Below, one piece after another: positions 32,448-51,260 of a DNA stretch of 64,000 bases. The stretch's first letter is position 1. Each line of letters begins with the position of its first letter. The notes beneath the pieces are model-generated. The model saw only the letters and a list, made by a program, of their open reading frames with translations, searched no databases and had not been told where the DNA came from. The DNA lies in NCBI GenBank assembly GCA_024803745.1, contig JANJXV010000039.1, forward strand, positions 7,072,001-7,136,000, written 5' to 3'. The DNA is from Megascapheus bottae (taxonomy: Eukaryota > Chordata > Mammalia > Rodentia > Geomyidae). Position numbers and translations under genes: made by a program.

Positions 32448-32704
32448 TAAAACTCAGGGAAACTACTACCTCAGGAAACACAGAGAAGTGAGTGGGAACA
32501 CAGCAGGAAAGCCTGGAAGCCATTTATCCAAATCTCCCAGGAATACTAGGGAAGCCACATGTGGCTCCTTTCATCAGAACTGGAGGCAGACACACCTGGA
32601 GGGCCAGTCTCCACCTCCAGCCTCAGAACAAGCAGCAACACACGTGTGTGATTGCACATGGCAGTAAAGGAGCCCCAGTGTCCACAAGTGCACAAACCAC
32701 GACA

Positions 32705-32913
32705 CAATGGTGATTTATCTGCATGATTTATCTGCGTGATTTATTTGCAAAATTTTACCAAGAGTATAAAAAAATAAATACATTTTTGGCTCTGAGTTGG
32801 AGAATATACACACGTAATAAATACAGAAATGGCAATGGGGTAACATCAGGTAGAACAAGGAGTCAGTGCATAAATAAAGGGAAGGACCCAGGACTGGCTG
32901 TGCAGGGGCGCCG
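32705..32913 (-). promoter_or_regulatory. IFNL2: AU-rich 3'UTR of the left IFNL2/3-type gene, with poly(A) signals
   Basis: Reverse complement of the right-arm 3'UTR: 'tttatt' poly(A) signals near 32738-32745, the repeated 'gatttatctgcat' unit, and TAAAT pentamers. Confidence 0.6.
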
Positions 32914-34402
32914 TCATTTGCACTGGGGGCCCTTGATGACACAGCTCAGGTCCCGGGTGAGGAGGTGAAACAGGTTGAAGGTGACAGAGGCCTGCAGGCA
33001 GCCTGGAGACTCCTGTGGAGACACGATTGCGGGGGGAGGAAGAGTTACACTTGTGCAAGATGGGGATGCAGGCTCAGTGCTCCCCTATCCTGTCCACCAC
33101 CCACCCCTCACCTTCTTCAGGGCAGCCTGGAGTCTGTGCAGCCACTGGGCCAGGCGGCGGCTGTGGGGTCTGGGGCTGGCTGAGGGCTGAGCCAGAGCCT
33201 GGGGACAGAACAGAGTGGGGGTGACGCCAGGCCTGGCACCCAGGGGACCACCGGGCAGCAGAGCCCCCCATGGCCCAGGAGGACCTGGACCCAGGACTCA
33301 CACAGGCCTGGAGCTGCGAGTGGATGGAGTGCAGGGTGCTGAGTGGCTGCTCCAGGAGGTCCCCCAGGGCGGGGTCAGCCACGGAGCCCAGGACCTTCAG
33401 CGTCAGGGCCAGCTCAGAGCCCAGGGCCCGGGGGCGCTCCCACACCTGAGGGGCAGACACAGGGTGGGGCTCAGCTGAGGAGGGGCTAGGAGGGGAGTCG
33501 GGAGGGACAGGAGAGGGGACACTGGTAGCAGCACAGACAATGCTTTCCCCAGAGACCAGGTCTGGGAGTCATGGAGGAGAGAGGAGAGGGGGAGGCAGGG
33601 AGGGGAGGACTCAGAGAGGAGACCACAGAGGGGCATGGGGAGGGGAGGCCAGACCTGACTCCAACTCACCTGCAGCTGCCTCAGGTCCCGGGCCCTGGGG
33701 AAGACGTGGGAGCTGCACTTGACGTCCTTCTGCAGGAGGGACTGTTCCTGGAGGGGAGGGCACAGGTTACCCACGCAGGAGCTCCAGGACAGCCCAGCGT
33801 GGGCTAGTAGAGGTGAGCCTGAGCCCACAAAGGAGGGGAAGCATTAGCCAGTGCAGGAGGGAAGAGGTTAGCCCACAGGGGAGGAGGCAGGCTAGACCCA
33901 GCGAAGAAACTAGAGGATGCTCACGGAGGGGACATCCACACGCAGGAAGATGGCAGCCCCTCTCCAGGAGGGGGATTTGCACATGGCACTGAGGGCAGGA
34001 GCGAGCCCCCTGCAGCTGGGGTGCAGGTTAGCCCGCTGTGGGAGGGGGGATGCTCCCGGAAGCTCAGTGGCGATGGCAGCCCCCAGCGGAGGGGTCAGCC
34101 GGCACAGCAGAAGACCAGTCACTCACCAGGGCATCCTTGGCTCTCCTGAAGGCCTGGAACTCTTGTGGGGACAGGGACTGGAACTGGTCCAGGTGGCAGT
34201 CCCCGGCATCCGACTGTCTCTGGAGGGCCTTGGTCACAGGAGCTGCCTGGGTGCTGCCCAGAGCCCAGGCCATCAGCAAGGCCAGGAGGAGCCTGTGGTG
34301 TCCAGACATGTCTGTGGCACAGAAGGGCAGCAGGTGAGTGGGGAGGGCCCGGACACAGCGGGGTGGGGGACAGGCCAAGAGCACCTCCAACTCACCCTGC
34401 AA
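32914..34402 (-). CDS. IFNL2: Type III interferon lambda, IFNL2/3-type, left palindrome arm; first ATG lost
   Basis: This is a secreted antiviral cytokine that acts through IFNLR1/IL10RB (family knowledge). Minus-strand coding exons are 34127-34311, 33670-33747, 33302-33445, 33112-33198 and 32914-33012, all with GT-AG introns. A first exon ending at 34393 corresponds to MLQ-D of the right-arm copy, but its ATG reads ATA (34400-34402). Translation would therefore start at the exon 2 methionine (34307-34309), giving 196 residues that still begin with a hydrophobic signal peptide (HHRLLLALLMAWALG). Six cysteines are spaced for the family disulfides (42-139, 76-173, 192-199 in the 200-residue numbering). 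The remaining codons appear the same as in the right-arm gene. The name IFNL2 is given by position only; it could equally be called IFNL3. Confidence 0.92.
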
Positions 34403-34574
34403 TATCAGCGACTCTGGCGCCCCTCAGTAGTGGTTCCCGGGTTGGCGGCTGGAGAGGTGACACGGGCTCAGAGTGTCCTCGTGGACTGCAGCCTGCTGGG
34501 GCCAGACAGCCGAGGCTCGTGGGTTCCAGCGGGTTGGAAGACACGCTGAGTGCCAGGGCTCCAAGGCGCTGCTT

Positions 34575-34735
34575 CTTTTAACCTGGCTGGCTGGGCACTC
34601 CCAGCTGATGAAGGGAAAATGGAAAACGCAGCCTGGGTGACACTGGCCGCTAGGGGAGCCACGCTGGGAAAGCCCAGAGGGGGCGGGGCCACATAGGTGA
34701 GCAGCTGAGGGAAAAGGAAAGGGCGGGACACACCT
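34575..34735 (-). promoter_or_regulatory. IFNL2: Putative promoter of the left IFNL2/3-type gene
   Basis: Just upstream of the gene (minus strand) is a TATA-like 'ttaaaag' (34575-34581). An IRF-type purine run 'gggaaaatggaaaac' lies at 34613-34627, with a second 'gggaaaaggaaaggg' near 34708-34722. A kB-like decamer GGGAGTGCCC lies between the TATA-like box and the first IRF-type run. IFNL promoters are known to use IRF and NF-kB sites; the assignment to these exact strings is inference. Confidence 0.45.
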
Positions 34736-34810
34736 GGCGAGAGACTTAGTGACTTCCAGAAGGAGCCGTGAGCCACGAGGACAGGTCCCACTGCTTGTCA
34801 GGGTGTATCT

Positions 34811-34960
34811 CAATCAGACAGACAGGCAGACAGAGAGAGAGGGAGAGAGAGAGAGAGGGGGGGAGAGAGAGACAGACAGAAAGAGATAGAGACAGAGGGA
34901 GAGAGAGACAGAGGGAGAGAGAAACAAAGGGGGAGAGAGAGACAAAGAGAAAGAGAGAGA

Positions 34961-35040
<80 letters not shown>

Positions 35041-35042
35041 GC
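34811..35042 (+). repeat. (GA)n/(GACA)n microsatellite, left arm
   Basis: Imperfect GAGA and GACAGA runs ending in a pure GA stretch followed by (GACA)n at about 35010-35040. Confidence 0.95.
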
Positions 35043-35254
35043 ACAGGTCTGGGAGCTGAAGGCCTGCAGGACAGGGATGCTGAGAAGCTACAAAGTATCC
35101 AGGAACCCCAAGAAAGAAAGGGAGAGGTCCCCCATCTTTTCCTGAATAAAGCCATCTGAGAAGGATGGGGTCGGTCACCATCTTGGGGCTGACACCGTTC
35201 AAGGGACAACTCAGAGCCCTGGGAAACCAACACGGACAGCGAGACCCAAGATTG

Positions 35255-35470
35255 CTCCTGGGAGGGCTCGTGCCCACCATCCTAGCTACTCAGGAGGCTG
35301 AGATCCCAGGAGCCTGGTTTGAACACAACCAGGGAGACAAACGGACAGACTTATCTCCAATCAACCATGAAAAAGCCACCTGCAGAGATCTGAACCTCGT
35401 GGTAGAGTGCCAGTACTGAGCCACAAAAAGCTCCAAGGACAGTGACCAGTCCCTAAGCTCATGCCTTAGT
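35255..35470 (+). mobile_element. Type B SINE shared by both arms (left copy)
   Basis: 'ctagctactcaggaggctga' core. The mirror copy is at 48485-48690, so it predates the duplication. Confidence 0.8.
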
Positions 35471-35472
35471 GT

Positions 35473-35477
<5 letters not shown>

Positions 35478-35514
<37 letters not shown>
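35478..35514 (+). repeat. (CA)n microsatellite, left arm
   Basis: Pure CA run of about 36 bases, the counterpart of 48424-48478. Confidence 0.95.
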
Positions 35515-35516
<2 letters not shown>

Positions 35517-35779
35517 ATCTAATTCAGCTGCTTTATAACCTCCTCCTCCACGTCTGCTCCCCCTTGGAGTTCATAGAAAGTCTCCCAGATGAGGAACGGT
35601 CCAGAGTCAGTTCCTGGAGTGACGCTCTATCTAGCTCCATGTCGTGGTCCCATTTGAAACTCGGGTCCCCGACTCCTGGCTCCTGCTTTGTGTTTCGATG
35701 TGGATGGGTGGTAGAACGCACCTCCAAGTGGCCCGGGAAAATAAGCACCACAAACGCAGCACTATTCCCCGTGGATGTT

Positions 35780-35785
35780 TTTATT
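35780..35785 (-). terminator. IFNL4: Poly(A) signal, probable left IFNL4 3' end
   Basis: 'tttatt' (AATAAA on the minus strand), about 385 bases after the left IFNL4 stop and matching the right-arm signal. Confidence 0.55.
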
Positions 35786-36167
35786 TAATAACTTATAGTT
35801 CAGCACCAAGAGGAGAAGAAGAGCAAACACAGGCATTTCAGGTCACAGAACGCAGAGTGACAGTGACTTGAGGACCCGGGCCTTCAGTGAGGACGAGGAT
35901 CCCAGAAACACAGATTCACAGAATCCACTCGAGTCTCGGGGTTCCCAGGCCGGGCTGGGATCTGCCCTGGCAGGGTGACACTGCCAGGAATCCCCGAGGG
36001 AGCCGCGGCCCCAGACACCAGGCTCAACGCTGGCCTCCACGAGAGCGTGAGCAGGAGCCCGAGGCGGCTGTGCCCGGATCCGGAGGAAGGAGGCAGCGGA
36101 TCCCGGAGCCGGGCGTTCGCAGGGTGACGCGCACAGGTCCGGGTCCCGCGCGCCGGGATGGGCGAAC

Positions 36168-37553
36168 TCACACGCAGGGCCCCGCGTTCGCCACCGCCCT
36201 GAGGTCCTCCGTGAGCGTGCGCAGGAGGCTGAAGATGACCGCGAACTCGTGACAGCGCGGCGAGGCCCGGGAGCCGGGCGGAGGCGAGGGGCGCGGAGTC
36301 GGGGTTTCCTGCGCTTCGGGGCCCCGCGCTCCCACCACCGCCCTGCGCGCTGCGCGGCGCCTCCCCGGCCTCCGCGGCCACGTCCTGGGGGATCTGGGCG
36401 GGATCAGCCGCAGCTGCGGGCGGACGCGGGGCGGTGAGGACCCGGGCCGGTGAGGTCGGGGGCCGGGCGCGCCCTCCCCGACGCCCCGCGTCCTCCCCGG
36501 CCGCACGGCCCTGCGGGGCCTGGGCGGACGCGGGGCGCTCGGGGCGCGGGCGGCGGCGAAGCGGGGTGTCGGGCGCGGGTCACTCACGCAGGCCTCCAGG
36601 TCCCGCCGCGCGGCCGCCAGCAGCTCCAGCGTCGGGCCGGTGCCGGGCAGGGGCGCGGGGCTCCGCGGGCTGCTCAGCACCGCCTGCGCGTCGGCGATGG
36701 CTCGGGCCACGTGTCGCATCCGCGCACAGGACTGCGGGGACCCGGGAGGGAGGGAGGGGAGGAGGGAGGGAGTGAGAGGGCGCCGCGCCCCGCCGCACCC
36801 GCCCCGCCCAGCCTCGCCCGGCCCCGCCTCACCGACGACGGCGGCGGCGGAGTCCTGCGCGCGCCGGACGAGCACTCGCGGGGCCACTGCCTCTGAATCT
36901 CTTCCTCCTACGGGACGAGCGCCCGGTGAGTCCGGGGTCCCCATTCCGCACCCCAGATCCCGACCGCGGGAAGCCTGGGGCCCGGGGCCTCCGGCCGCCA
37001 GGGCTCCTGCCACGGAGCAGGGCTGCGGGGAGGGGGACAGGACCCGCGCCTGGCGGCGATGCGGGGACGCACGGGACGCGGGACGCCCCTGGGGTCTGCA
37101 CCGAGCCGGCTCAGCCCGGGGCCTGCAGGACCAGCGCCTGGTGGGGCTGGGGCCCCCTCGGCCCTCTCGTCCCACGCCCCGAGCGCGGGCAGCCTGGGAT
37201 CCCGCGACGGGCAGGGACGACCGGGGCCCCAAGGCCCAGGCCCGCATCTGTCGGAGGCCGCGCGCCTCGAGGCCCCGCCCGCCCCGCCGCCGCCAGCCGC
37301 GTCCTGGCCCCCAGTGAGGACGAGGGCGCGTCGGGAGCTGGGGCGGGGACGCGGGCTGAGGCTCGCGGTCACTCACGTAGCCGTTCCTCAGCGCCCTGAC
37401 GGCCGCCAGCACCTCGGGGTCCAGCGAGCGGTACTGGGAGAGGACGCAGCGCCCTGGCTCCCCCGCCAGCCCCGACGCCGCCTTCCCCAGCGCCCACAGC
37501 GCGCACAGCACCAAGGCCAAGGCCGCCTGGACTCTCGCGGACATCGAGGACAT
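36168..37553 (-). CDS. IFNL4: IFNL4, left palindrome arm, apparently intact
   Basis: Minus-strand exons are 37377-37553, 36833-36907, 36588-36731 and 36168-36413, all with GT-AG introns (donors 'gtgag'), encoding 213 residues. The signal peptide is MSSMSARVQAALALVLCALW. Family blocks are RCVLSQYRSLDPEVLAA (helix A), CARMRHVARAIADAQAVLS, LELLAAARRDLEAC and FSLLRTLTEDLR, ending GPCV. Six cysteines (36, 71, 86, 132, 186, 212) match those of human IFNL4. The human N-linked site (N-C-S in exon 2) is E-C-S here, so no sequon remains. Exon 4 is longer than the human equivalent because of an Arg/Pro-rich linker; an unrecognised small intron inside it cannot be excluded. Glycine 163 is aspartate in the right copy. 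In this copy one frame stays open across the whole gene, introns included. Human has only a pseudogene (IFNL4P1) at the comparable second position, to my knowledge. Confidence 0.9.
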   Translation of the reverse strand: MSSMSARVQAALALVLCALWALGKAASGLAGEPGRCVLSQYRSLDPEVLAAVRALRNGYVSDREPQPASPPQLPTRPRPHWGPGRGWRRRGGRGLEARGLRQMRAWALGPRSSLPVAGSQAARARGVGREGRGGPSPTRRWSCRPRAEPARCRPQGRPASRASPHRRQARVLSPSPQPCSVAGALAAGGPGPQASRGRDLGCGMGTPDSPGARPVGGRDSEAVAPRVLVRRAQDSAAAVVGEAGPGEAGRGGCGGARRPLTPSLLPSLPPGSPQSCARMRHVARAIADAQAVLSSPRSPAPLPGTGPTLELLAAARRDLEACVSDPRPTPRFAAARAPSAPRPPRPRRAVRPGRTRGVGEGAPGPRPHRPGSSPPRVRPQLRLIPPRSPRTWPRRPGRRRAARRAVVGARGPEAQETPTPRPSPPPGSRASPRCHEFAVIFSLLRTLTEDLRAVANAGPCV

Positions 37554-38174
37554 CGCGGGCGTCGCTGCTCCTGCGGGAGCAGAGCATCAGTCTGGCCAAC
37601 GCCAGGGACCCCCACCCGGCCGGACCCCCATTCCCCGCACTGCAGCAGGCTGGAGCCAGGGCGCTGCCCGGCCACTGGTGGGGGAAGCGCCGGCCCCTGA
37701 AGCCCGCTCTCCCCTCTGCCCTTCTTCTCACCTACAGCGAGTTCTTGGGTTCTGAAGCTGGGGGACCTGGGGTCCTCTGTCCCTTGGGTGGTGCACAGAG
37801 AGCTGCCCACCGTCTCCACTGGTCCCTGAGCCGTCCATGGTGACTTTTATGTGCCTGGAGGAGAAATGGTTCGAAACTGGGCTTCCCCAACCGCGGAGTC
37901 CATTTTCCGAACATCACAGCTGGCAGAGACCCAGCGGGATGCTGGCCAGGGTGTGAGAACTTTGCCAGCCAGTGGTTGGGTGACATTGCTGACTGGTGGT
38001 TAACCCACACTTAACAAATGTAGTCTCTTTCCTATCTCTCCCTTGCATCAGTGCAGTGTCATTTCCTCTATCTGGGTACCAATATCTTTATAACCAGTCC
38101 TGCACCCCTGCAGTCCCAGTGAGAGGAATAACCAACGTTTGAGAACAGAACAGCTAATGTTAGTGGAACCCTGT

Positions 38175-38560
38175 TTCCAGGAGTTTGGCCTAGTGGTAAA
38201 GGCTTGCCTAGCATGCATAAAGACCTGGGTGGATTCCTTGGTACTACATACATAGCAAAAGCCAGAAGTGGTGCTGTGGCTCAAGTAGTGGAGTTCTAGC
38301 CTTGAGAAGACTCAAGGACAGTGCTCAGGCCCTGAGTTCAATCCCCTGGACTGACAAAAAAAAAATGAGGGGCTGAGAATGTGGCTTAGTGGTAGAGGGC
38401 TTGCCCTGCATGCAAGAAGTCCTAGGTTCGACTCCTCAGTACCAGATACACAGAAAACACTATATGTGGCAGTAAAGCTTAAGTGGCAGAGTACTAGCCC
38501 TGAGCCAAAGAAGCTCAGTGACATTCCCTAGGTCCTGAGTTCAAGCCCCAAGTCTGGCAA
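38175..38560 (+). mobile_element. Two tandem type D SINEs
   Basis: Copies 38175-38360 and 38367-38560, just inside the loop. Confidence 0.85.
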
Positions 38561-38584
38561 AACAAAAACAATCTAAATGAGGTG

Positions 38585-39270
38585 GGTGCCAGTGACACCT
38601 GCAATCCTGGCTACTCAGGAAGTGCCAGGGCCAGCTGGCAATGAATGGGAATTCCTGATTTAGGGGGTGAGGACTTGGAAAAGAAATAGACAAGAGACAA
38701 ACAGGTGGGGTCGGGAGGTCTACAGCCCAGGTCAGCAGACCAAGAAGGCTGTGAGCTTAAGACTGAAGCACCGATTATTTCTAAATCAAGTCTTATATAC
38801 TTTCTTGAAACCAGGGAACTGCCAGGGGTTACCTTAGCACCAAATGGTAATCAGGTCTCAGATCAGTGAAGCAGAAAGTGATAAAGCAATAACACATTTT
38901 TACCAAATGGTAATCAAGTCTCAACAGAAAGATAAAGCAATAAATCAATAAAGTCAGGAGGTTCACAATACTGACAGTACAGCTCAAAATTTATAGGCAT
39001 GGCGTCACACATGACAGACAGCTCACTTCTTTGTGTGGTTATCTTACTCAGTGATGCAGATTCTTAGGACAGTCTGACTCCACACTCCCCAGGAAGCTGA
39101 GATTTGAGTGTTTTGGTTTGAAGTCATCTCAGGCAGGAAAGTCTGTGAGACTCCATTCACCCTCCAGCAAACCGGAAGTGGTGGGGAGGCTCAAGGTGAT
39201 AGAACAGAAGCCTGAGCAAAACCTCCGTGCTCAGTGCTCAGACACCAAGTTCAATCCTCAGGATCAGAAA
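38585..39270 (+). mobile_element. Type B SINE split by the solo LTR
   Basis: Left piece 38585-38622, right piece 39091-39270; the junction sequence 'aggaag' is duplicated. Confidence 0.85.
38623..39091 (-). mobile_element. Solo LTR, class II (IAP-like) endogenous retrovirus
   Basis: About 468 bases, TG...CA ended, flanked by a 5-6 base duplication (aggaag at 38617-38622 and 39091-39096) and sitting inside a type B SINE whose halves resume on each side. On the minus strand it reads U3, a TATA-like 'gtatataagac' and then a C/T-rich U5. About 220 bases of its U3 match 41987-42211. Confidence 0.8.
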
Positions 39271-40049
39271 ACAGAACGAAAGTCCTGAATGATCAGGAAG
39301 GAATCGGACTGGAGCCCAAACAAGGGATGTCACTTCCTGGTACCCCGGAGGCCATGTGTTTTACTGCACAACCACCACCATCACCACCACAAATCTTTTC
39401 TAAAATTCATCTGGATGCATACCCATCATCTCTTCATTCCTCAAGAACCTGGCCAAGTGAAGGTTCCTAACCCATTTTACAGGTTGAAAACAGAGACCCA
39501 GTTACACAAAGATTTCCCCCTTGGTTCAGGCAGCAGAGGTGAGCTGTGGACCTCTGCACTGTAGTTTAAAAGCTGTAATTCCTAAAGGACCCTTTACATG
39601 TGACCCACTGTTTTTTTTGGGGGGGGGTCAGTCATAGGACTTGAACTCTCAGATCTCAGGCTCCTGAATAGCTAGGATTATAGCGTGAGCCACCAGCACC
39701 TGGCTGAAATGTGTTTATTTGTGCAAGTGTTTTGTGATGAACAACACTCTCTCCAAGAGAAAAACACACAACTCTGGAGAATATGTCTTGTGTCCCACCA
39801 GCAGAAGGTAAAACTATGTTTAACAGTTTGTAACAATCTCTCCTTCTCTGTGAGCCATCTAGCCAAACTGTAAGCTGGTGGTATACAGAGCAGTGGCCTG
39901 CTTTTTTGTCTCATTTGCATTTCCCCACATCTTTAATTACACTGTATCAGTTAGGATCCAGCAGGAAGCAGATGGTCCAATCAATTTAGGATAATTTGAG
40001 GCGCAGTTTGTCCCTGGAGCATTTGGGAAAAGATTGGATAGTGAAGCGG

Positions 40050-40830
40050 GCCACTGATGGTTCAGGGCTGTATCCCTAACTACTCAGGAGGCTGAGATCT
40101 GCAGGTCATGGTTGAAAGGCAACCCAGGAAGGAAAATCTGTGAGACTCTTATTTCTAATTAAGCACCAAAAAGTCAGAAGTGCTCAAAGTGTAGAGCACT
40201 AGACTTGAGTGAAAAACTCAGAGACAGTGCCCAGGCCCTGATTTCAAGCCCCAAAGGGGAGAGAGAGAGGGGGGAGGGAGAGAGAGAGGGAGGGGGGAGA
40301 GAATGAAATGACTGAAGTTAAGAAAAGGTCCTGGGGCCTGCATGGGAGAGGGGCAGTCACCTCTACCTCCACTGGGAGGAAGTGTAGGTAGGAATTAAGG
40401 GAATGGATTCACTGTGGAAATTTTGAAGGAGAAAGCCTGGGGATAACTTAACCTGACTTCCTTTCCTTTCTTCTTGGCTTTCCCACTAAGCTCTAGGCAA
40501 AGGAAAATGAGACTAGAGTCCTGACAGGGAGAAGCAGATCCATCGCTGGAAGATAGGCTCTCTCTACTGCTGTCCATTCTTACAGGAGCATTTAATAAGA
40601 ATTAATTAAGCCAGGCGCCAGTGGCTCACACCTGTAATCCTAACAACTCAGGAGACTGAGATCTGAGGATCTCAGTTCAAAGCCACCCTGGTCACAAAAG
40701 TCTGGGAGATTATCTCCAGTGAACCCCCAGAAAACTGGAAGTGGCACTGTGGCTTAAGTGGTAGAGCAGTAGCCTTGAGCTGAAAAGCTCAGGGACAACA
40801 CCCAGGCCCAGAATTCAAGCCTTACAACAG
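40050..40830 (+). mobile_element. Two type B SINEs
   Basis: Copies 40050-40260 (with a GA-rich tail to 40310) and 40613-40830, whose tail runs into the polypurine tract. Confidence 0.82.
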
Positions 40831-41122
40831 AAGAAGGAGGAGGAGGAGGAGCAGGAGGAGCAGGAGGAGGAGGAGAAGGAGAAGGAGAAGGAGAAGAGGA
40901 AGAGGAAGAAGAAGAAAAAGAAGAAGAAGAAGAAGAAGAAGAAGAAGAAGAAGAAGAAGAAGAAGAAGAAATAAATAATAAATAAAGAAGAGGAGGAGGA
41001 GGAGGAGGAGGAGGAGGAGGAGAAGAAGAAGAAGAAGAAGAAGAAGAAGAAGAAGAAGAAGAAGAAGAAGAAGAAGAAATAAAGAAGAAGTGGAGGAGGA
41101 GGAGAAGGAGGAGGAGGAGGAA
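40828..41122 (+). repeat. Long polypurine (GAA)n/(GGA)n tract
   Basis: Nearly 300 bases of G and A only, apart from short 'aaataaataataaataaag' breaks. Blocks of GGA and GAA alternate (GGA-GAA-GGA-GAA-GGA). It grows from the tail of a type B SINE. Confidence 0.95.
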
Positions 41123-41369
41123 AAAATATCACTGGAGCAAAAGAGCTCTGTGTCTCTACCTCCCTATGAGAGCACCCACACTTGTCCTTCTGTTCTTTGT
41201 TCTGTTTTCCTGCTTGCTCACCAGCTTGATTTGTCCAGACATTCTCATTCTTCAATCAAAATCAAGGACTGTAAGTAAAGGAAACCTCACTAACCCACAC
41301 ATGCATATAGTATTGGGCTTGCCTTCTTCCGTTCTCTTCTTCTCCTTCTTCTTTTCATCCTCCTCCTTC

Positions 41370-41985
41370 TTCTTGCTTGAACTCAGGATCTGAGCACTGT
41401 CCTTGGGCTTTCTCAAAGCTGGAGCTCTACCACTTGAGCCACAGAACTACGTCTGGCTTTTTCTATATATGTGGTACTGAGGAATCGAACCCAGGACTTC
41501 ATGCATGCTAGGCACTCTATCATGAGGCCAAACTCTTGGCCCCAGGCCTGGCATTCTTTTTAGGTGTCAAAGTCCTGAGTTCAAGCCCCAGGACTAATGC
41601 AAATAAGATAAAATAAAAACTGAGCTCTATAATCCTGTAATCCTTGTGACCCAAAAGACTGAGATCTCAGAGTCAGGGCACCAAGTCAGCCAAGGGGGCT
41701 GGAAAGGTGCCTTAGTGGAGAGGGCTTGCCTAGCCTGTGTAAAGCCCTGAGCACAATTCCTCAGTAACACTACACAGAAAAAGCCAGAAGTGGTGTTATG
41801 GCTCATGTGGTAGAGTGCTGGCCTTGAGCAAAAGAAGCTCAAGGACAATGCCCAGGCCTTGAGTTCAAATCCCAAGACTGGCAAAAAAAAAAAACATCAA
41901 AAGCAGGAAATGTTCTGGATATTGTCTCCAATTAACTAGGAAAACACCAGATACAGAGTGTGCCTGAAGTGGCAGCTCACCAGCA
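41370..41985. mobile_element. Type D SINEs and a B piece beside the truncated LTR
   Basis: D reversed 41370-41545, short pieces to 41690, D forward 41697-41893, B piece 41895-41985. Confidence 0.75.
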
Positions 41986-41986
41986 G

Positions 41987-42211
41987 AAGGTGATAAAGCA
42001 ATAACATATTTGTACCAAATGGTAATCAAGTCTCAACAGAAAGATAAAGCAATAAATCAATAAAGTCAGGAAGTTCACAATACTGACAGTATAGCTCAAA
42101 ATTTATAGGCATGGCGTCACACATGACAGACAGCTCACTTCTTTGTGTGGTTATCTTACTCAGTGATGCAGATTCTTAGGACAGTCTGACTCCACACTCT
42201 GGCTCCCAACA
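41987..42211 (-). mobile_element. Truncated second LTR joined to ERV internal sequence
   Basis: Matches the U3 half of the solo LTR closely. On the minus strand it starts TGTTGGGAGCC, the kind of start known from IAP LTRs. It ends abruptly at a SINE at 41987, so R and U5 are missing. Confidence 0.75.
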
Positions 42212-45200
42212 TCTTGATTTTAAAAGAAGCGAATCCGCCTGTCTTAGGTTGGGTGGATCGCTGACTCTGCCTTACCCGTCATGGGGAACTTCTTCAGATC
42301 AAGCTGATGGCCAGAGCGCATCCCCGCTTTACCCGTCCCTGGCTGTGATTCCTCTTGGGGGAAACTCGTTCATCTGGAGCTTGATTTTGTGGAGTTGACC
42401 TGCAAAATTTAGTAATGAATTTTGCAAGATCTTTACCACACAAGGTAGGCAAATAATAATTATTATAAGCGACATTTCTGGACCAACAAAGGTCATCAGT
42501 AAGCCTTTTAAGTTGTTTAAGGAGGGAACATACGGCTGAAACTGTTCAAACAACTCCTTGGCTCTCTGTTATCTCAACATCAAGTGATGGTGCCTACTCA
42601 AGCCCAATGATTTGTCTATGAAGCTGAAATAAATCAACAAATAAGTTTGTGTGATGTCAAAGTCCATTTCTCTGGGGATCGGAAAGTCCAAAATCCTCAC
42701 ACGCTGTCTCCATCTAGGAATGATGAATCCAGTAGCTCTTTACTGGAAACCAGCTGATGAAATCAACTTGAAGGCCTGTGAGGACAGGGTTTAGTTCCAG
42801 TCCTCTCAGGAAGCAGCTGCAGGGTGGTGGAATCAGGCAGGACAGAATGTGAGCAGCAGTCTCAGCTCTCAGCAGCTCCAATGGAATGTCACACCTCCTG
42901 CTGGGTCACCTGCAAATTTCTGCACAGATCAGTTAAAGAAGCTTAACCTAAGGCCTGACTTTGCTGAATTCTCCAATGATTGCCTGGTTGCTTTACCTGA
43001 GCACACTCTTTTGCAGGCTGGCACCCCATTGGTTTTTAGGACAATATAGGGCTGAGATTCCAAAGTAATACCAGGGTGACAACTTTTAGTAACCAGATTT
43101 CCTTTAAATGAGGCTAGGATTCTCTAGTCAGGGATAGAAGATTTGAACCTGTGCAGTCTCCACTCTTGCACATCTGTTACTACTCTTTCCCATACCTCTA
43201 ATTTATCCTGTCTCACTTCCCAAAAATGATTCTGGTCCCTTCATTTTAAGGGGGTTGATGGGTGAAGATTCATCTTCTGTAACCTCTTCAAGCTGACTCA
43301 GGGGCGTTGTCTCTATACTTACCTAAGGACCCTAAAAGCTTAGCCTATTTTACCAAGGGGTTGCCAGGATTACATTTCAGGAGCAATATTTTACTCCAAA
43401 CTGGAGATCATATAAAACATTTAACAACTGCATAAACCTTTTCTTTGGCTACAACAGTGTAGCTTACTTAGCACCCATTTGCAAAGGCATTTTCTTGATT
43501 GTTTGGGGAACTTGATCTCTGTGACCCTAACAATGCTTCAGTTGTCAATGTAGGCCTAAACAGATCATTAGGGACACAGCCTCAGGTTCACAGACTTTCC
43601 TGAATTTATGGCTGGTGTCAAATCGAAATTCACTCACTTAGGGCTTTGAGCAAATACAGGGGGTCAGGATTGTAAACTATGCACTGTTACAGATGACTGA
43701 CAAGTTCCTGCCCATTATGAAAGGCACGGGCATTAGGAAGGCATGCTTACAAACTATTCTATGACCTCCCAGCCCTGATTAATTTTAAATGGCCAAGCAC
43801 GAGTGACTCTAGGTTCTGACACCATCTCTGCCATTCAAACAGTGGACTTTGTCGGTTGCTGGGCTTGAACTCAGGGCCTAGGTGCTGTCCCTCAGCTCTT
43901 GAGCTCAAGGCTAGCACTCTGTCACTTTGAGCTCAAAGCAACTCTGCCTCATTAGCATTCTGCTGGTAGATGAGACACCATGGTCTCACAGGGACTTTGC
44001 TTTGTCCGGGCTGGCTCAGAACTGCAAATTTCAGATCAATGAGTCCTTTAGAAGGCCACTTTACTCCAATTAAAGCAAGAAGGTGGTCAACACAGAAATA
44101 GTCTCTAAGCATGATCTTACCTGGAACTTGGTAAGGGCCAAAATTACATCTGAATAAGGGTCTGCTATCCTCTTCCATGGGTCTGCTGGAAATTGTTATA
44201 AACTTACAAGAACAAACTGAAATAGCAATTAAGCAATCATTTTGGCAGTCCTACTTTCACTTGTTTCTCTCTTTTATTTTTTTGCTTGCTTTATTTATTT
44301 ATTTATTTTCATATTTTTTAATTGTAATTAATAGAAGGGTTACATTATATTCACCAGATAGAAGGTACATTACTTCACATACATTGATACCCTTTCTCAT
44401 GTCTTGGTCTCCATTTCCCTCCCCCCACCCCCTCTCTCTTTTATTTTTATTATTTATTTATTTATTTATCTTGGTTAGGTTACTGCTTAGAACTCCAATA
44501 ACAGTTTAAACTCAAATAACAGTGTTTCCCTAATGCAAGAATTACAAACATCAGTGCACCAAAAGTCCAGACTTAGTTTCCTTCTTTTTCTAAAATACAT
44601 TCAATTGTAAAGTAGCATGAAACCAAATCATAAGGAGATAACCCTCTAAACATTTTGTAAACCCCCTTTTCCCTAAATTAATACATTTTAGGGGGCAGTT
44701 TAAGAAATACTAATCACATCACCCACATTCTACCATCAGATTTCCAATGTTAGTCTGCAAGGAAAACGAGACAGGACGAAGATGGTCTACTCTGCCCATC
44801 TGAGCAGGTTTAGATGAACAGCCTTTGTGCCAGCTTATCTTCTTTCACCATGCACGGACCCTCCCTAGGGCATGTCCCACCATGGGAACCCAGAGCTGCA
44901 CTTTTTCCAGTTTACCTCTCACCCCCAAAGATAGGCTCACAGGACTAAACTAAGTTTTCCTGTCCTTTCTCTTGGCATTTGATTACCTAAACAATTTAAA
45001 AAGATAAACAGACAAGGTTTCTGACATTGATAAGCAAATTCACATTTAAATTTCTGATACTTATCTCCAAACTTGAACTCCAGGAAATAAATTCCAAATT
45101 CCCTAATACCTCTGTGCTGAACAGGATACAATGTTTACAATGTAAACAGCTCTATGCATTACAATACCAGATTTTTAAAATGCAGATTTTAGGATCTTTA

Positions 45201-45340
45201 GAAAAATACTTTTAACCAGTTCCTCTTTAAAACAATGCAATAAAATTTGAAATATTCAAACCCAATCATTTCATTGAAGTTTAAACTTAGATTTACCCAA
45301 TTGCCTTTGTGTATCAAGTATAAATTCATCCATTGTTTTA
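42212..45340 (-). mobile_element. Degenerate ERV internal region (env 3' end recognisable)
   Basis: On the minus strand, 42329-42553 encodes a short open stretch with a strongly hydrophobic segment (IIIIICLPCVV) followed by a basic/amphipathic tail. This resembles the membrane anchor of a betaretrovirus-type Env just before the LTR. The rest is broken by stops and by inserts (a SINE piece at 43845-43930 and AT-rich, perhaps L1-derived, DNA at 44270-44490). Gag and pol were not recognised. It is a non-functional relic. Confidence 0.55.
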
Positions 45341-45344
45341 TTGA

Positions 45345-45800
45345 TTGATTGATTGATTGCCAGTCCTGGGCTTGAGTTCAGGGCTTGAGCACTGTCCTTG
45401 GACTTTCTCAAGCTTAGAGCTCTACCACTTGAGCCTCAGCACCACTTCTGACTTTTTTCTATGTATGTGGTACCAAGGAATCGAACCCAGGTCTTCGTGC
45501 ATGCTAGGCAAGCACTCTACCACTAGGCCAAACTCCCGGCCCTCATTCATTGTTTTATACAGTATGTTGACAATTTAACCTTGAACACGTTCACTCACAC
45601 CCATTTACACACATTCATACTCAAAGATCTTAAAGCGTACAAAATTAATTTCAGCCGGGGTTCGATTCCTTGGTACCACATACATAGACAAAAGCTGTAA
45701 ATCGTGCTGAGACTCAAGTGGTAGAGTGCTAGCCTTGAGAAAGTCCAAGGACAGTGCTCAGACCCTGAGCTCAAGCCCAGGACTGGGAAAAAAAAAAAAA
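45345..45800. mobile_element. Two type D SINEs at the inner edge of the right arm
   Basis: Reversed 45345-45543; forward 45653-45800 lacking its first about 50 bases. Confidence 0.82.
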
Positions 45801-46346
45801 AGAAAAGAAAAGATATGTTGCCAGTAAATAACTACAATGCAGAAGAGACACAGGACACAGACAGCAGACGAGCAGCTGTCCGGTGTGCTCAGATGACACA
45901 ACTGAGGACAGCCACAGCTGGGACAGGTTCACTGATGAGTAAAGTCCACCAGCTCGGCTGACATCCCACCCAGCCTAGGGCCAGCAATGACATAGGGAAA
46001 AGGACACCCCGGCCGGGGAAGCCCAGTCGAACCATTTCTCCTCCAGTCACATGAAAGTCACCATGGACGGCTCAGGAACCAGTGGAGACGGTGGGCAGCT
46101 CTCTGTGCACCACCCAAGGGACAGAGAACCCCAGGTCTCCCGGCTTCAGAACCCAAGAACTCGCTGTAGGTGAGAAGAAGGGCAGAGGGGAGGGCGGCTT
46201 CAGGGCCAGGCTCGTCCCCCACCAGTGGCCGGGCAGCGCCCTGGCTCCAGCCTGCTGCAGTGCGGGGAATGGGGGTCCGGCCGGGTGGGGGTCCCTGGCG
46301 TTGGCCCGACTGATGCTCTGCTCCCGCAGGAGCAGCGACGCCCGCG

Positions 46347-47769
46347 ATGTCCTCGATGTCCGCGAGAGTCCAGGCGGCCTTGGCCTTGGTGCTGTGCGCG
46401 CTGTGGGCGCTGGGGAAGGCGGCGTCGGGGCTGGCGGGGGAGCCAGGGCGCTGCGTCCTCTCCCAGTACCGCTCGCTGGACCCCGAGGTGCTGGCGGCCG
46501 TCAGGGCGCTGAGGAACGGCTACGTGAGTGACCGCGAGCCTCAGCCCGCGTCCCCGCCCCAGCTTCCCGACGCGCCCTCGTCCTCACTGGGGGCCAGGAC
46601 GCGGCTGGCGGCGGCGGGGCGGGCGGGGCCTCGAGGCGCGCGGCCTCCGACAGATGCGGGCCTGGGCCTTGGGGCCCCGGTCGTCCCTGCCCGTCGCGGG
46701 ATCCCAGGCTGCCCGCGCTCGGGGCGTGGGACGAGAGGGCCGAGGGGGCCCCAGGCCCACCAGGCGCTGGTCCTGCAGGCCCCGGGCTGAGCCGGCTCGG
46801 TGCAGACCCCAGGGGCGTCCCGCGTCCCGTGCGTCCCCGCATCGCCGCCAGGCGCCGGTCCTGTCCCCCTCCCCGCAGCCCTGCTCCGTGGCAGGAGCCC
46901 TGGCGGCCGGAGGCCCCGGGCCCCGAGCGCGCGTTCCCGCCGTGCCCGGTGCAGGGCCCCAGGCTTCCCGCGGTCGGGATCTGGGGTGCGGAATGGGGAC
47001 CCCGGACTCACCGGGCGCTCGCCCCGCAGGAGGAAGAGATTCAGAGGCAGTGGCCCCGCGAGTGCTCGTCCGGCGCGCGCAGGACTCCGCCGCCGCCGTC
47101 GTCGGTGAGGCGGGGCCGGGCGAGGCCGGGCGGGGCGGGTGCGGCGGGGCGCGGCGCCCTCTCACTCCCTCCCTCCTCCCCTCCCTCCGTCCCGGGTCCC
47201 CGCAGTCGTGTGCGCGGATGCGACACGTGGCCCGAGCCATCGCCGACGCGCAGGCGGTGCTGAGCAGCCCGCGGAGCCCCGCGCCCCTGCCCGGCACCGG
47301 CCCGACGCTGGAGCTGCTGGCGGCCGCGCGGCGGGACCTGGAGGCCTGCGTGAGTGACCCGCGCCCGACGCCCCGCTTCGCCGCCGCCCGCGCCCCGAGC
47401 GCCCCGCGTCCGCCCAGGCCCCGCAGGGCCGTGCGGCCGGGGAGGACGCGGGGCGTCGGGGAGGGCGCGCCCGGCCCCCGACCTCACCGCCCCGGGTCCT
47501 CACCGCCCCGCGTCCGCCCGCAGCTGCGGCTGATCCCGCCCAGATCCCCCAGGACGTGGCCGCGGAGGCCGGGGAGGCGCCGCGCAGCGCGCAGGGCGGT
47601 GGTGGGAGCGCGGGACCCCGAAGCGCAGGAAACCCCGACTCCGCGCCCCTCGCCTCCGCCCGGCTCCCGGGCCTCGCCGCGCTGTCACGAGTTCGCGGTC
47701 ATCTTCAGCCTCCTGCGCACGCTCACGGAGGACCTCAGGGCGGTGGCGAACGCGGGGCCCTGCGTGTGA
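46347..47769 (+). CDS. IFNL4: IFNL4, right palindrome arm, apparently intact
   Basis: Exons are 46347-46523, 47030-47104, 47206-47349 and 47524-47769, giving 213 residues. The layout and motifs are those of the left copy, with aspartate at 163 (GARDPEAQE). All splice sites are GT-AG. Intron 1 is 506 bases against 469 on the left, mainly because of an extra GC-rich block near 46924-46960. It lies upstream of, and co-oriented with, the IFNL2/3-type gene, as human IFNL4 does with IFNL3, so this is the positional orthologue of human IFNL4. IFNL4 signals through IFNLR1/IL10RB (family knowledge). Mouse and rat lack the gene, so a rodent with two open copies is notable. A non-coding exon ending near 46169 (donor 'gtgagaag') plus an acceptor ending at 46329 may supply 5'UTR. 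Confidence 0.92.
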
Positions 47770-48152
47770 GTTCGCCCATCCCGGCGCGCGGGACCCGGAC
47801 CGGTGCGCGTCACGCTGCGAACGCCCGGCTCCGGGATCCACTGCCTCCTTCCTCCGGATCCGGGCACAGCCGCCTCGGGCTCCTGCTCACGCCCTTGTGG
47901 AAGGCCAGCGTTGAGCCTGGTGTCTGGGGTCGCGGCTCCCTCGGGGATTCCTGGCAGTGTCACCCTGCCAGGGCAGATCCCAGCCCCGCCTGGGAACCCC
48001 GAGACTCGAGTGGATTCTGTGAATCTGTGTTTCTGGGATCCTCGTCCTCACTGAAGGCCCGGGTCCTCAAGTCACTGTCACTCTGCGTTCTGTGACCTGA
48101 AATGCCTGTGTTTGCTCTTCTTCTCCTCTTGGTGCTGAACTATAAGTTATTA

Positions 48153-48158
48153 AATAAA
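48153..48158 (+). terminator. IFNL4: Poly(A) signal, probable right IFNL4 3' end
   Basis: AATAAA in 'ttattaaataaaaacatcc', about 385 bases after the IFNL4 stop. The mirror signal on the left arm is at 35780-35785. Confidence 0.55.
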
Positions 48159-48421
48159 AACATCCACGGGGAATAGTGCTTCGTGTGTGGTGCTTATTTT
48201 CCCGGGCCTCTTGGAGGTGCGTTCTACCACCCATCCACATCGAAACACAAAGCAGGAGCCAGGAGTCGGGGACCCGAGTTTCAAATGGGACCACGACATG
48301 GAGCTAGATAGAGCATCACTCCAGGAACTGACTCTGGACCGTTCCTCATCTGGGAGACTTTCTATGAACTCCAAGGGGGAGCAGACGTGGAGGAGGAGGT
48401 TATAAAGCAGCTGAATTAGAT

Positions 48422-48423
<2 letters not shown>

Positions 48424-48478
<55 letters not shown>
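48424..48478 (+). repeat. (TG)n microsatellite, right arm
   Basis: Pure TG run of about 54 bases, longer than its left-arm mirror. Confidence 0.95.
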
Positions 48479-48481
<3 letters not shown>

Positions 48482-48484
48482 ACA

Positions 48485-48690
48485 CTAAGGCATGAACTTA
48501 GGGACTGGTCACTGTCCTTGGAGCTTTTTGTGGCTCAGTACTGGCACTCTACTACGAGGTTCAGATCTCTGCAGGTGGCTTTTTCATGGTTGATTGGAGA
48601 TAAGAGTCTGTCCGTTTGTCTCCCTGGTTGTGTTCAAACCAGGCTCCTGGGATCTCAGCCTCCTGAGCAGCTAGGATGGTGGGCACGAGC
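48485..48690 (-). mobile_element. Type B SINE shared by both arms (right copy)
   Basis: Inverted partner of 35255-35470, between IFNL4 and the IFNL2/3-type gene. Confidence 0.8.
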
Positions 48691-48913
48691 CCTCCCAGGA
48701 GCAATCTTGGGTCTCGCTGTCCGTGTTGGTTTCCCAGGGCTCTGAGTTGTCCCTTGAACGGTGTCAGCCCCAAGATGGTGACCGACCTGATCCTTCTCAG
48801 ATGGCTTTATTCAGGAAAAGATGCCGGACCTCTCCCTTTCTTTCTTGGGGTTCCTGGATACTTTGTAGCTTCTCAGCATCCCTGTCCTGCAGGCTTTCAG
48901 CTCCCAGGCCTGT

Positions 48914-48921
48914 GCTCTGTC

Positions 48922-48999
<78 letters not shown>

Positions 49000-49156
49000 T
49001 CTCTGTCTCTCTCTCCCCCTCTGTTTCTCTCTCCCTCTGTCTCTCTCTCCCTCTGTCTCTGTCTCTGTCTGTCTCTCTCTCTCTCTCTCTGTGTCTCTGT
49101 CTCTCTCTCTCCCCCTCTGTCTCTCTCTCTCCCTCTGTCTCTGTCTGCCTCTGTCT
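48914..49156 (+). repeat. (CT)n/(CTGT)n microsatellite, right arm
   Basis: Mirror of the left-arm GA/GACA tract, with different internal unit counts. Confidence 0.95.
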
Positions 49157-49239
49157 GATTGAGATACACCCTGACAGGCAGTGGACCTGTCCCCGTGGCT
49201 CGGGGCTCCTTCTGGAAGTCACTAAGTCTCTCTCCAGGT

Positions 49240-49396
49240 GTGTCCCGCCCTTTCCTTTTCCCTCAGCTGCTCACCTGTGTGGCCCCGCCCCCTCTGGGCT
49301 TTCCCAGCGTGGCTCCCCTAGCGGCCAGTGTCACCCAGGCTGCGTTTTCCATTTTCCCTTCATCAGCTGGGAGTGCCCAGCCAGCCAGGTTAAAAG
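49240..49396 (+). promoter_or_regulatory. IFNL3: Putative promoter of the right IFNL2/3-type gene
   Basis: Mirror image of the left promoter: TATA-like 'ttaaaag' (49390-49396), kB-like GGGAGTGCCC (49369-49378) and an IRF-type run on the opposite strand, 'gttttccattttccc' (49344-49358), about 170-220 bases before the ATG. Confidence 0.45.
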
Positions 49397-49565
49397 AAGC
49401 AGCGCCTTGGAGCCCTGGCACTCAGCGTGTCTTCCAACCCGCTGGAACCCACGAGCCTCGGCTGTCTGGCCCCAGCAGGCTGCAGTCCACGAGGACACTC
49501 TGAGCCCGTGTCACCTCTCCAGCCGCCAACCCGGGAACCACTACTGAGGGGTGCCAGAGTCGCTG

Positions 49566-51056
49566 ATGTTGCAGGGTGAGTTGGAGGTGCTCTTGGCCTG
49601 TCCCCCACCCCGCTGTGTCCGGGCCCTCCCCACTCACCTGCTGCCCTTCTGTGCCACAGACATGTCTGGACACCACAGGCTCCTCCTGGCCTTGCTGATG
49701 GCCTGGGCTCTGGGCAGCACCCAGGCAGCTCCTGTGACCAAGGCCCTCCAGAGACAGTCGGATGCCGGGGACTGCCACCTGGACCAGTTCCAGTCCCTGT
49801 CCCCACAAGAGTTTCAGGCCTTCAGGAGAGCCAAGGATGCTCTGGTGAGTGACTGGTCTTCTGCTGTGCCGGCTGACCCCTCCGCTGGGGGCTGCCATCG
49901 CCACTGAGCTTCCGGGAGCATCCCCCCTCCCACAGCGGGCTAACCTGCACCCCAGCTGCAGGGGGCTCGCTCCTGTCCTCAGTGCCATGTGCAAACCCCC
50001 CTCCTGGAGAGGGGCTGCCATCTTCCTGCGTGTGGATGTCCCCTCCGTGAGCATCCTCTAGTTTCTTCGCTGGGTCTAGCCTGCCTCCTCCCCTGTGGGC
50101 TAACCTCTTCCCTCCTGCACTGGCTAATGCTTCCCCTCCTTTGTGGGCTCAGGCTCACCTCTACTAGCCCACGCTGGGCTGTCCTGGAGCTCCTGCGTGG
50201 GTAACCTGTGCTTCCCCTCCAGGAACAGTCCCTCCTGCAGAAGGACGTCAAGTGCAGCTCCCACGTCTTCCCCAGGGCCCGGGACCTGAGGCAGCTGCAG
50301 GTGAGTTGGAGTCAGGTCTGGCCTCCCCTCCCCATGCCCCTCTGTGGTCTCCTCTCTGAGTCCTCCCCTCCCTGCCTCCCCCTCTCCTCTCTCCTCCATG
50401 ACTCCCAGACCTGGTCTCTGGGGAAAGCACTGTCTGTGCTGCTGCCAGTGTCCCCTCTCCTGTCCCTCCCGACTCCCCTCCTAGCCCCTCCTCAGCTGAG
50501 CCCCACCCTGTGTCTGCCCCTCAGGTGTGGGAGCGCCCCCGGGCCCTGGGCTCTGAGCTGGCCCTGACGCTGAAGGTCCTGGGCTCCGTGGCTGACCCCG
50601 CCCTGGGGGACCTCCTGGAACAGCCACTCAGCACCCTGCACTCCATCCACTCGCAGCTCCAGGCCTGTGTGAGTCCTGGGTCCAGGCCCTCCTGGGCCAT
50701 GGGGGGCTCTGCTGCCCGGTGGTCCCCTGGGTGCCAGGCCTGGCGTCACCCCCACTCTGTTCTGTCCCCAGGCTCTGGCTCAGCCCTCAGCCAGCCCCAG
50801 ACCCCACAGCCGCCGCCTGGCCCAGTGGCTGCACAGACTCCAGGCTGCCCTGAAGAAGGTGAGGGGTGGGTGGTGGACAGGATAGGGGAGTACTGAGCCT
50901 GCATCCCCATCTTGCACAAGTGTAACTCTTCCTCCCCCCGCAATCGTGTCTCCACAGGAGTCTCCAGGCTGCCTGCAGGCCTCTGTCACCTTCAACCTGT
51001 TTCACCTCCTCACCCGGGACCTGAGCTGTGTCATCAAGGGCCCCCAGTGCAAATGA
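49566..51056 (+). CDS. IFNL3: Type III interferon lambda, IFNL2/3-type, right palindrome arm, intact
   Basis: Six coding exons: 49566-49575, 49660-49844, 50223-50300, 50525-50668, 50772-50858 and 50958-51056, all GT-AG, giving 200 residues. The short first exon (ATG TTG CAG G) joins exon 2 to read MLQDMSGHH, the same layout as human IFNL2/3 (MKLDMTG). The signal peptide ends near STQA|APV. Family blocks are clear: CHLDQFQSLSPQE (helix A), CSSHVFPRARDLRQLQ, ALTLKVLGS, PALGDLLEQPL, WLHRLQ and ESPGCLQASVTFNLF. The stop follows KGPQCK. Six cysteines at 42, 76, 139, 173, 192 and 199 fit the three known disulfides. No N-glycosylation sequon is seen. The gene lies about 1.8 kb downstream of, and co-oriented with, an IFNL4 gene, and is followed by AU-rich 3'UTR motifs. 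Confidence 0.96.
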
Positions 51057-51260
51057 CGGCGCCCCTGCACAGCCAGTCCTGGGTCCTTCCCTTTATTTAT
51101 GCACTGACTCCTTGTTCTACCTGATGTTACCCCATTGCCATTTCTGTATTTATTACGTGTGTATATTCTCCAACTCAGAGCCAAAAATGTATTTATTTTT
51201 TTATACTCTTGGTAAAATTTTGCAAATAAATCATGCAGATAAATCATGCAAATAAATCAC
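51057..51260 (+). promoter_or_regulatory. IFNL3: AU-rich 3'UTR of the right IFNL2/3-type gene, with poly(A) signals
   Basis: Several ATTTA pentamers (51090-51200) are followed by AATAAA at 51225-51230 and 51251-51256. Around the signals a 13-base unit close to 'ataaatcatgcag' is repeated about three times. AU-rich elements that destabilise cytokine mRNAs are well known. The same block occurs on the left arm at 32705-32910. Confidence 0.65.

What the first reader, a model, noticed from the sequence alone, without database searches (positions are those of the whole stretch)
36168..47769. Two open IFNL4 genes in a rodent
Both copies have complete signal peptides, all six family cysteines, intact GT-AG splice sites and full C-termini, and differ by one noticed residue (G/D at 163). 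Mouse and rat lack IFNL4, and many humans carry a frameshift in it. A second copy is only a pseudogene in human, to my knowledge. Two coding copies in a rodent would be unusual and would bear on claims that IFNL4 is under selection for loss.
Basis: partly seen in the sequence, partly recalled or inferred. Interest (0 to 1): 0.9.

Follow-up and report, generated by a model that had tools for sequence, protein, structure and literature searches.

The report
Twin IFNL4 genes in a gopher
A pocket-gopher-like rodent carries two nearly identical, open copies of the antiviral signal gene IFNL4, but both have lost a splice site and a sugar-attachment site, so they probably make an altered, possibly weakened, version of the protein.

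Summary
Two 213-codon IFNL4-type genes lie head-to-head (37553-36168 minus; 46347-47769 plus). They differ at two coding bases, one changing residue 163 (G/D). They sit in the arms of an inverted duplication beside two IFNL2/3-type genes encoding identical proteins.

Two points were missed. (1) The last "exon" contains the former intron 4, 72 nt in frame, whose acceptor CAG reads CGG in both copies. Residue 163 lies inside it. (2) The N-glycosylation site at human N61, reported as needed for human IFN-lambda4 activity, is absent.

IFNL4 in a rodent is not new: nine rodent genera have annotated IFNL4-like proteins. Two distinct IFNL4-like proteins are also listed for elephant, rhinoceros and others. 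An outer 470-bp block is 92% identical but the core about 99%, pointing to gene conversion on an older duplication.

Best reading: a converting palindrome maintains two IFNL4 genes encoding a structurally altered, probably attenuated IFN-lambda4. Expression and function are untested, and recent loss of function is the main rival.

The parts
36168..37553 (-). IFNL4 copy 1, 213 aa (G163); exons 37553-37377, 36907-36833, 36731-36588, 36413-36168
   Evidence: its protein is identical to copy 2 except residue 163; copy 2 matches Pfam IL28A 81 bits and PDB 9bpu_C
46347..47769 (+). IFNL4 copy 2, 213 aa (D163); exons 46347-46523, 47030-47104, 47206-47349, 47524-47769
47599..47670 (+). Copy 2: former intron 4 read as coding, 72 nt (residues 158-181); donor position GTGGTG, acceptor position CGG instead of CAG
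36267..36338 (-). Copy 1: the same former intron 4 (mirror coordinates); contains the G/D163 difference at 36322
32914..34309 (-). IFNL2/3-type gene a (five coding exons, 196 aa)
   Evidence: family PF15177
49662..51056 (+). IFNL2/3-type gene b (protein identical to a; 3 synonymous differences)
32550..37924 (+). Left arm of the inverted duplication (core about 99% identical to the right arm)
45980..51421 (-). Right arm of the inverted duplication
30534..31002 (+). Outer block of the older inverted duplication, left
   Evidence: 92% to 54573-54106; these are the only two strong matches found in the assembly
54106..54573 (-). Outer block of the older inverted duplication, right
22702..24169 (-). 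IFNL pseudogene in the IFNL1 position: in-frame TAG in exon 2 (24112-24110); exons 3-5 97-99% identical to genes a and b, consistent with conversion; exon 1 not looked for
48149..48160 (+). Poly(A) signal region (overlapping ATTAAA/AATAAA) 3' of IFNL4 copy 2; mirrored at about 35789 for copy 1

Best explanation
The window holds the type III interferon locus of a pocket gopher or close relative, arranged as a palindrome: IFNL2/3-IFNL4 facing IFNL4-IFNL2/3. The inverted duplication is older than its 99% core suggests, and ectopic gene conversion between the arms keeps both cassettes, including IFNL4, nearly identical. Each IFNL4 is probably transcribed as a four-coding-exon gene in which the old intron 4 is always retained. 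It would yield a 213-aa IFN-lambda4 with a 24-residue proline-rich insert just before the C-terminal SPRC segment and no N-linked glycan. I expect it to fold and signal through IFNLR1/IL10RB, but with reduced secretion or potency.

Shown: gene structure, duplication, homology, absence of the acceptor AG and of the sequon. Inferred: conversion, retention in mRNA, constraint, and all activity.
For: Structure and homology. Head-to-head arms. A 651-base query over exons 3-4 finds only the two copies at 99-100% in the 2.84-Gb assembly, so no redundant haplotig was found. Core about 99% identical, against 6% mismatch in the 5' flank (37554-37924) and 92% identity in an outer block with only two strong matches in the assembly. 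Conversion elsewhere in the locus: exons 3-5 of the IFNL1-position pseudogene are 97-99% like genes a and b, while its exon 2 has diverged.

Acceptor loss: predicted proteins of other species that read into the end of intron 4 show ...LPGFQ/DSPRC or the like (P0204, P0238, P0157, P0213, P0240, P0209, P0027), whereas the window reads ...PPGSR/ASPRC, with CGG at the Q codon.

Constraint: 5 of 45 conserved columns changed against 69 of 140 variable columns. Against Castor, IFNL4 has 31-39 against 16-22 lineage-specific differences, and the same animal's IFNL2/3 has 21-28 against 12-14, so there is no clear IFNL4-only relaxation. Survival of one copy without a lesion under simulated neutrality falls to about 0.01-0.06 at 5% divergence.

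Attenuation: N61A abolished glycosylation and the antiviral activity of conditioned medium for human IFN-lambda4 (PMC6181419 passages).
Against: No transcript data. No ortholog DNA, so no dN/dS. The window has the longest tip in the IFNL4 tree (0.52 against 0.23 for Castor). It changes five columns conserved in at least 95% of the others (L64Q, W66Q, L89M, L198T, L205A; 11%, as high as the highest of the 16 other species tested) and has the most residues unseen in others at variable columns (21; the 16 others 1-17). In the least variable third of sites it has 8-9 lineage-specific differences against 3-4 for Castor. No IFNL4 protein of Thomomys, Dipodomys or Perognathus appears among the 26 hits or the 120 shown of 140, although their IFNL2/3 are listed. 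A scan of 1 kb upstream finds no IRF-type or NF-kB-type motif at either IFNL4, whereas the IFNL2/3 genes have one and two IRF-type matches (no NF-kB match either). The permissive G+C-rich context makes open frames cheap.
Confidence: 0.55

Rival explanations
1. Recently dead gene pair. IFNL4 lost function in the gopher lineage (acceptor loss, donor decay, sequon loss), and both copies stay open only because little time has passed, the sequence is stop-poor, and conversion copies the same state to both.
For: Loss of the intron-4 acceptor and a weak-looking donor in both copies; loss of the sequon; longest branch and most novel residues; 21% chance openness by composition; simulated neutral copies at 1% divergence are intact 41-55% of the time; no IRF-type motif upstream, unlike IFNL2/3; no annotated IFNL4 protein of other geomyoids among the hits shown.
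Against: The retained intron is exactly in frame without a stop; six cysteines, E at the human-154 position and most conserved residues are kept; substitutions avoid conserved columns over the long term; IFNL2/3 of the same lineage is also fast.
Confidence: 0.3
2. Two ordinary, fully functional IFNL4 genes. Intron 4 is still removed through a cryptic acceptor, giving a near-canonical protein.
For: AG dinucleotides exist nearby (47607, 47622, 47627, 47690). Use of 47690/47691 would keep the frame (inference).
Against: The first three AGs would leave introns of about 10, 25 and 30 nt, too short for the spliceosome (general knowledge). 47690/47691 would delete SPRCHE with the conserved Cys186. 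Glycosylation would still be absent.
Confidence: 0.1
3. Assembly artefact: an inverted false duplication of one haplotype.
For: About 1% divergence could equal heterozygosity (not measured).
Against: No N in the window; unique spacer and flanks; a microsatellite difference and a 36-bp indel between arms; identity falls away at both ends, with an outer block at 92%; human and mouse have the same head-to-head layout, with about 6 kb over 97% identical and about 10 kb between (PMC2654155 passage).
Confidence: 0.04

Closest known systems
Human IFNL4 / IFN-lambda4 (PDB 9bpu_C; PMC4199494, PMC6181419, PMC6767866)
   Same: Position upstream of an IFNL2/3-type gene, six cysteines, leader, conserved C-terminal segment; 140 bits
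   Different: Two open copies; intron 4 retained as 24 residues; no N61 sequon; E at position 154, where nearly all humans have K (PMC6181419 passages)
Human and great-ape IFNL4-like region upstream of IFNL2 (PMC6767866 section 9)
   Same: Second IFNL4 cassette, upstream of the other IFNL2/3-type gene
   Different: The ape copy stops after 49 aa; here both frames are open
Castor canadensis interferon lambda-4-like (P0007, P0204)
   Same: Sister in the protein tree (branch support not printed); 52-57% identical for P0007
   Different: Intron 4 is removed in the P0007 model (DSPRC follows RRP directly); carries the NCS sequon
Two-copy IFNL4 entries of Elephas (P0010/P0190) and Diceros (P0019/P0023)
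   Same: Two distinct IFNL4-like proteins with the same longest-contig length; one elephant and both rhinoceros proteins also lack a sequon
   Different: Copies differ more; gene models are odd (fusion or intron read-through); DNA not examined here
Human IFNL4 expression control by intron retention (Hong 2016, known here only through a passage of PMC6137953)
   Same: Retained intron limits full-length product
   Different: Human retention is a splicing outcome; here the acceptor itself is gone and the intron stays in frame

Membership tests
IFN-lambda4 (IFNL4) | Pfam IL28A (PF15177) family match above cut-off | tested here: met
   81 bits, cut-off 27
IFN-lambda4 (IFNL4) | Closer to IFN-lambda4 than to IFN-lambda1-3 | tested here: met
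   140 bits to 9bpu_C against 24-26 bits to lambda1/lambda3 chains; falls with Castor in the IFNL4 tree
IFN-lambda4 (IFNL4) | Six mature cysteines and secretory leader | tested here: met
   C36, C71, C86, C132, C186, C212 aligned; leader judged by eye, no signal-peptide program run
IFN-lambda4 (IFNL4) | Locus position upstream of an IFNL2/3-type gene | tested here: met
   Both copies; flanked by an LRR/Ig gene and syncollin
IFN-lambda4 (IFNL4) | Five coding exons with intron 4 before (D/E)SPRC (typical, not strictly defining) | tested here: not met
   Acceptor AG absent in both copies, 72 nt read through; DNA of relatives not seen
IFN-lambda4 (IFNL4) | N-glycosylation sequon at the human N61 position (typical; absent from some annotated IFNL4) | tested here: not met
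   Window ECS, no sequon anywhere; 35 of 38 aligned orthologs have it
IFN-lambda4 (IFNL4) | Glutamate at human position 154 (ancestral, more active form) | tested here: met
   E188 in the window; significance from PMC6181419 passages
IFN-lambda4 (IFNL4) | Signals through IFNLR1/IL10RB and induces interferon-stimulated genes | not testable with these tools
   Needs expression assay

The most novel reading that the evidence does not exclude
The IFNL3-IFNL4 head-to-head palindrome is an old mammalian arrangement held together by gene conversion, so two IFNL4 loci are the ancestral state. IFNL4 is then repeatedly toned down by different routes: a frameshift and K154 in humans, a stop in the second ape copy, deletion in mouse and rat, and here a fixed, in-frame retained intron plus loss of the glycan in both copies at once.
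Probability: 0.25. Interest if true: 0.65.

Novelty: new variant of a known kind. Interest (0 to 1): 0.45.

Why it matters
IFNL4 is known for being favoured when broken in humans. A rodent lineage with two open copies, both carrying the same splice-site and glycosylation changes and apparently kept alike by gene conversion, is a natural test of whether IFN-lambda4 is selected for loss, for attenuation, or for retention. It also bears on the suggestion that the second IFNL4 copy arose by duplication in the great-ape lineage (PMC6767866 section 9), because a rodent shows the same head-to-head layout.

Tried and rejected
Rejected: "IFNL4 in rodents is new". "Chance open frame" as the whole story: homology is strong, although openness by itself is weak. 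"Assembly artefact": see rivals. "The outer 470-bp block is a dispersed repeat": only two strong matches plus one 88-base weak match in the assembly. "IFNL4-specific acceleration": the longest tip looked like relaxation, but IFNL2/3 of the same lineage is fast too.

Led nowhere: dN/dS (no ortholog DNA within reach); upstream motif scan (no IRF-type match at IFNL4, one and two at IFNL2/3; four simple patterns, too crude to decide); searches for papers on rodent IFNL4 or IFNL4 copy number (no paper on a two-copy rodent IFNL4 seen in the listings).
Full report
What is there. The window (64,000 bases, no N) lies at G000:C39:7072001-7136000 of a 2.84-Gb assembly. It contains the type III interferon locus. 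From left to right: an LRR/Ig-domain gene (6.8-8.4 kb; Pfam; the name LRFN1 is my recall of the human neighbourhood); an IFNL pseudogene (22.7-24.2 kb, minus); an IFNL2/3-type gene (34309-32914, minus); IFNL4 copy 1 (37553-36168, minus); a spacer; IFNL4 copy 2 (46347-47769, plus); a second IFNL2/3-type gene (49662-51056, plus); and syncollin (59.5-60.0 kb, Pfam Syncollin). In human, IFNL4 is upstream of IFNL3 and an IFNL4-like region is upstream of IFNL2 (PMC6767866 section 9). From the recalled position of human SYCN beside IFNL3 and LRFN1 beside IFNL1, copy 2 would be the positional IFNL4 and copy 1 the positional partner of the ape IFNL4-like region.

Source organism. The IFNL2/3 protein matches Thomomys bottae best (P0028). 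Its model includes an apparent intron piece; over the window's 196 residues 193 agree. Thomomys bottae (listed as Megascapheus bottae) is in Geomyidae, Castorimorpha. I infer a pocket gopher or close relative; the species is not settled.

The two IFNL4 copies. Both encode 213 aa and differ at codon 85 (synonymous) and codon 163 (G/D). Copy 2 gives Pfam IL28A 81 bits; human IFN-lambda4 9bpu_C 140 bits; 26 ortholog hits and 140 with a profile (120 listed). In a protein tree of the window and 37 species the window is sister to Castor (branch support was not printed). A DNA search of the assembly with 651 bases over exons 3-4 finds the two copies at 100 and 99%, and otherwise only short matches of less than 100 bases.

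The window has 24 residues, 158-181, between the basic stretch (RRA-like) and the SPRC segment, where none of the 38 orthologs that I aligned has any. That count is partly a result of my choice: models holding intron-4 residues were among the 83 of 121 hits left out. The telling evidence is in those left-out models. Predicted proteins that read into the end of intron 4 show what it encodes when translated: LPGFQ, LPGLQ or LPEFQ followed by DSP(R/G)C in Castor P0204, Neofelis P0238, deer P0157, the bat P0213, the unnamed P0240, narwhal P0209 and pangolin P0027. The window reads PPGSR-ASPRC at the same place. So the codon that must be CAG in a working acceptor is CGG, in both copies. On the donor side the window reads GTGGTG, where two read-through models (P0027, P0213) have V-S, as a GTGAGY donor would give (inferred from protein only). 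The former intron is now 72 nt, in frame and stop-free, and still has a pyrimidine-rich 3' half. The only AGs nearby are at 47607, 47622 and 47627 (introns far too short, general knowledge) and 47690, whose use would delete SPRCHE with a conserved cysteine. The single residue that differs between the copies, 163, lies inside this former intron.

Glycosylation. The human N61 position is E70 here, and the protein has no N-x-S/T at all. The site is present in 35 of 38 aligned orthologs and absent in pika, rhinoceros and Pteronotus, so its loss is uncommon but not unique. Over all 121 hits, 99 have a sequon somewhere (several of the 22 without one are partial models). In human IFN-lambda4, N61A abolished glycosylation and the antiviral activity of conditioned medium (PMC6181419, passages). 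The residue at human position 154 is the ancestral, more active E here.

Duplication history. Arms 32550-37924 and 51421-45980 align over 5461 columns at 96.5%. Most 250-base bins of the core show 0.4-2% mismatch; a simple-repeat stretch reaches 8%, the IFNL4 5' flank 6%, and homology then ends. Outside the arms a 470-bp block matches its inverted partner at 92%. In the whole assembly these are the only two strong matches found, with one further 88-base match at 74%, so it does not look like a dispersed repeat. An older inverted duplication with a younger-looking core is what ectopic gene conversion leaves. The IFNL1-position pseudogene shows the same: its exon 2 carries a stop (24112), yet about 560-580 bases over exons 3-5 are 97-99% identical to genes a and b. 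In human and mouse IFNL2/IFNL3 are also inverted, over 97% identical across about 6 kb, about 10 kb apart (PMC2654155, passages, where gene conversion is mentioned as a possibility). Whether the palindrome is ancestral or re-formed repeatedly cannot be settled here.

Is it under constraint? For: 5 of 45 conserved columns changed against 69 of 140 variable ones (Fisher 3e-6). This mixes older and younger changes, so it speaks to the long term only. Simulated neutral decay leaves one copy intact 32% or 17% of the time at 2% divergence and 5.5% or 1.4% at 5%, for two assumed indel rates. Against: the window has the longest tip (0.518; Castor 0.231), the most residues unseen in other species at variable columns (21 against 1-17 in the 16 others tested) and a share of changed conserved columns (11%) matched only by Heterocephalus and Erinaceus among those 16. 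In three-sequence relative-rate counts IFNL4 has 31-39 window-specific against 16-22 Castor-specific differences over six outgroups, p below 0.05 in three of six; in the least variable third of sites it is 8-9 against 3-4. IFNL2/3 gives 21-28 against 12-14 over five outgroups, p below 0.05 in two of five. The lineage is therefore fast at both genes, and nothing singles out IFNL4 clearly. A recent loss of function, within the last few percent of divergence, cannot be excluded. An upstream scan found no IRF-type motif at IFNL4 but one and two at IFNL2/3; it is crude, but it leans against interferon-like induction of IFNL4.

Known background. IFNL4 is present in most mammals analysed and constrained (dN/dS 0.23, N=12), and absent in mouse and rat (PMC4199494, passages). 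The ape second copy stops after 49 aa (PMC6767866 section 9). Full-length human IFN-lambda4 is poorly expressed because of intron retention and a weak poly(A) signal (passage of PMC6137953 citing Hong 2016; Hong 2016 itself not read). In the listings I saw no paper on a two-copy rodent IFNL4 or on loss of the intron-4 acceptor. The library is open-licence papers only, so this is not proof of absence.

Verdict. It is a new variant of a known gene. The surprise is not that a rodent has IFNL4, nor that there are two, but that both share a lost splice site turned into coding sequence and a lost glycan site, inside what looks like a converting palindrome.

Noticed in passing
22702-24169 (minus): IFNL pseudogene in the IFNL1 position: exon 2 carries TAG at 24112-24110, while exons 3-5 are 97-99% identical to the two IFNL2/3-type genes, a likely gene-conversion tract.
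   Followed up: partly
32914-34309 (minus) and 49662-51056 (plus): Two IFNL2/3-type genes encode identical 196-aa proteins with only three synonymous differences.
   Followed up: yes
36171-37586 (minus): A single stop-free frame of 472 codons runs through the whole of IFNL4 copy 1, introns included, a reminder that open frames are cheap in this G+C-rich stretch.
   Followed up: partly
6773-8359 (plus) and 59503-60021 (plus): Flanking genes: an LRR plus immunoglobulin-domain protein (LRFN1 by position, recalled) and syncollin.
   Followed up: partly
P0028 (Thomomys bottae interferon lambda-2-like): The public gene model appears to include a piece of intron 1 as coding; the window's gene gives a cleaner five-exon model.
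   Followed up: no
P0010/P0190, P0019/P0023: Elephant and black rhinoceros each list two distinct IFNL4-like proteins with the same longest-contig length, suggesting two-copy loci outside Euarchontoglires.
   Followed up: no
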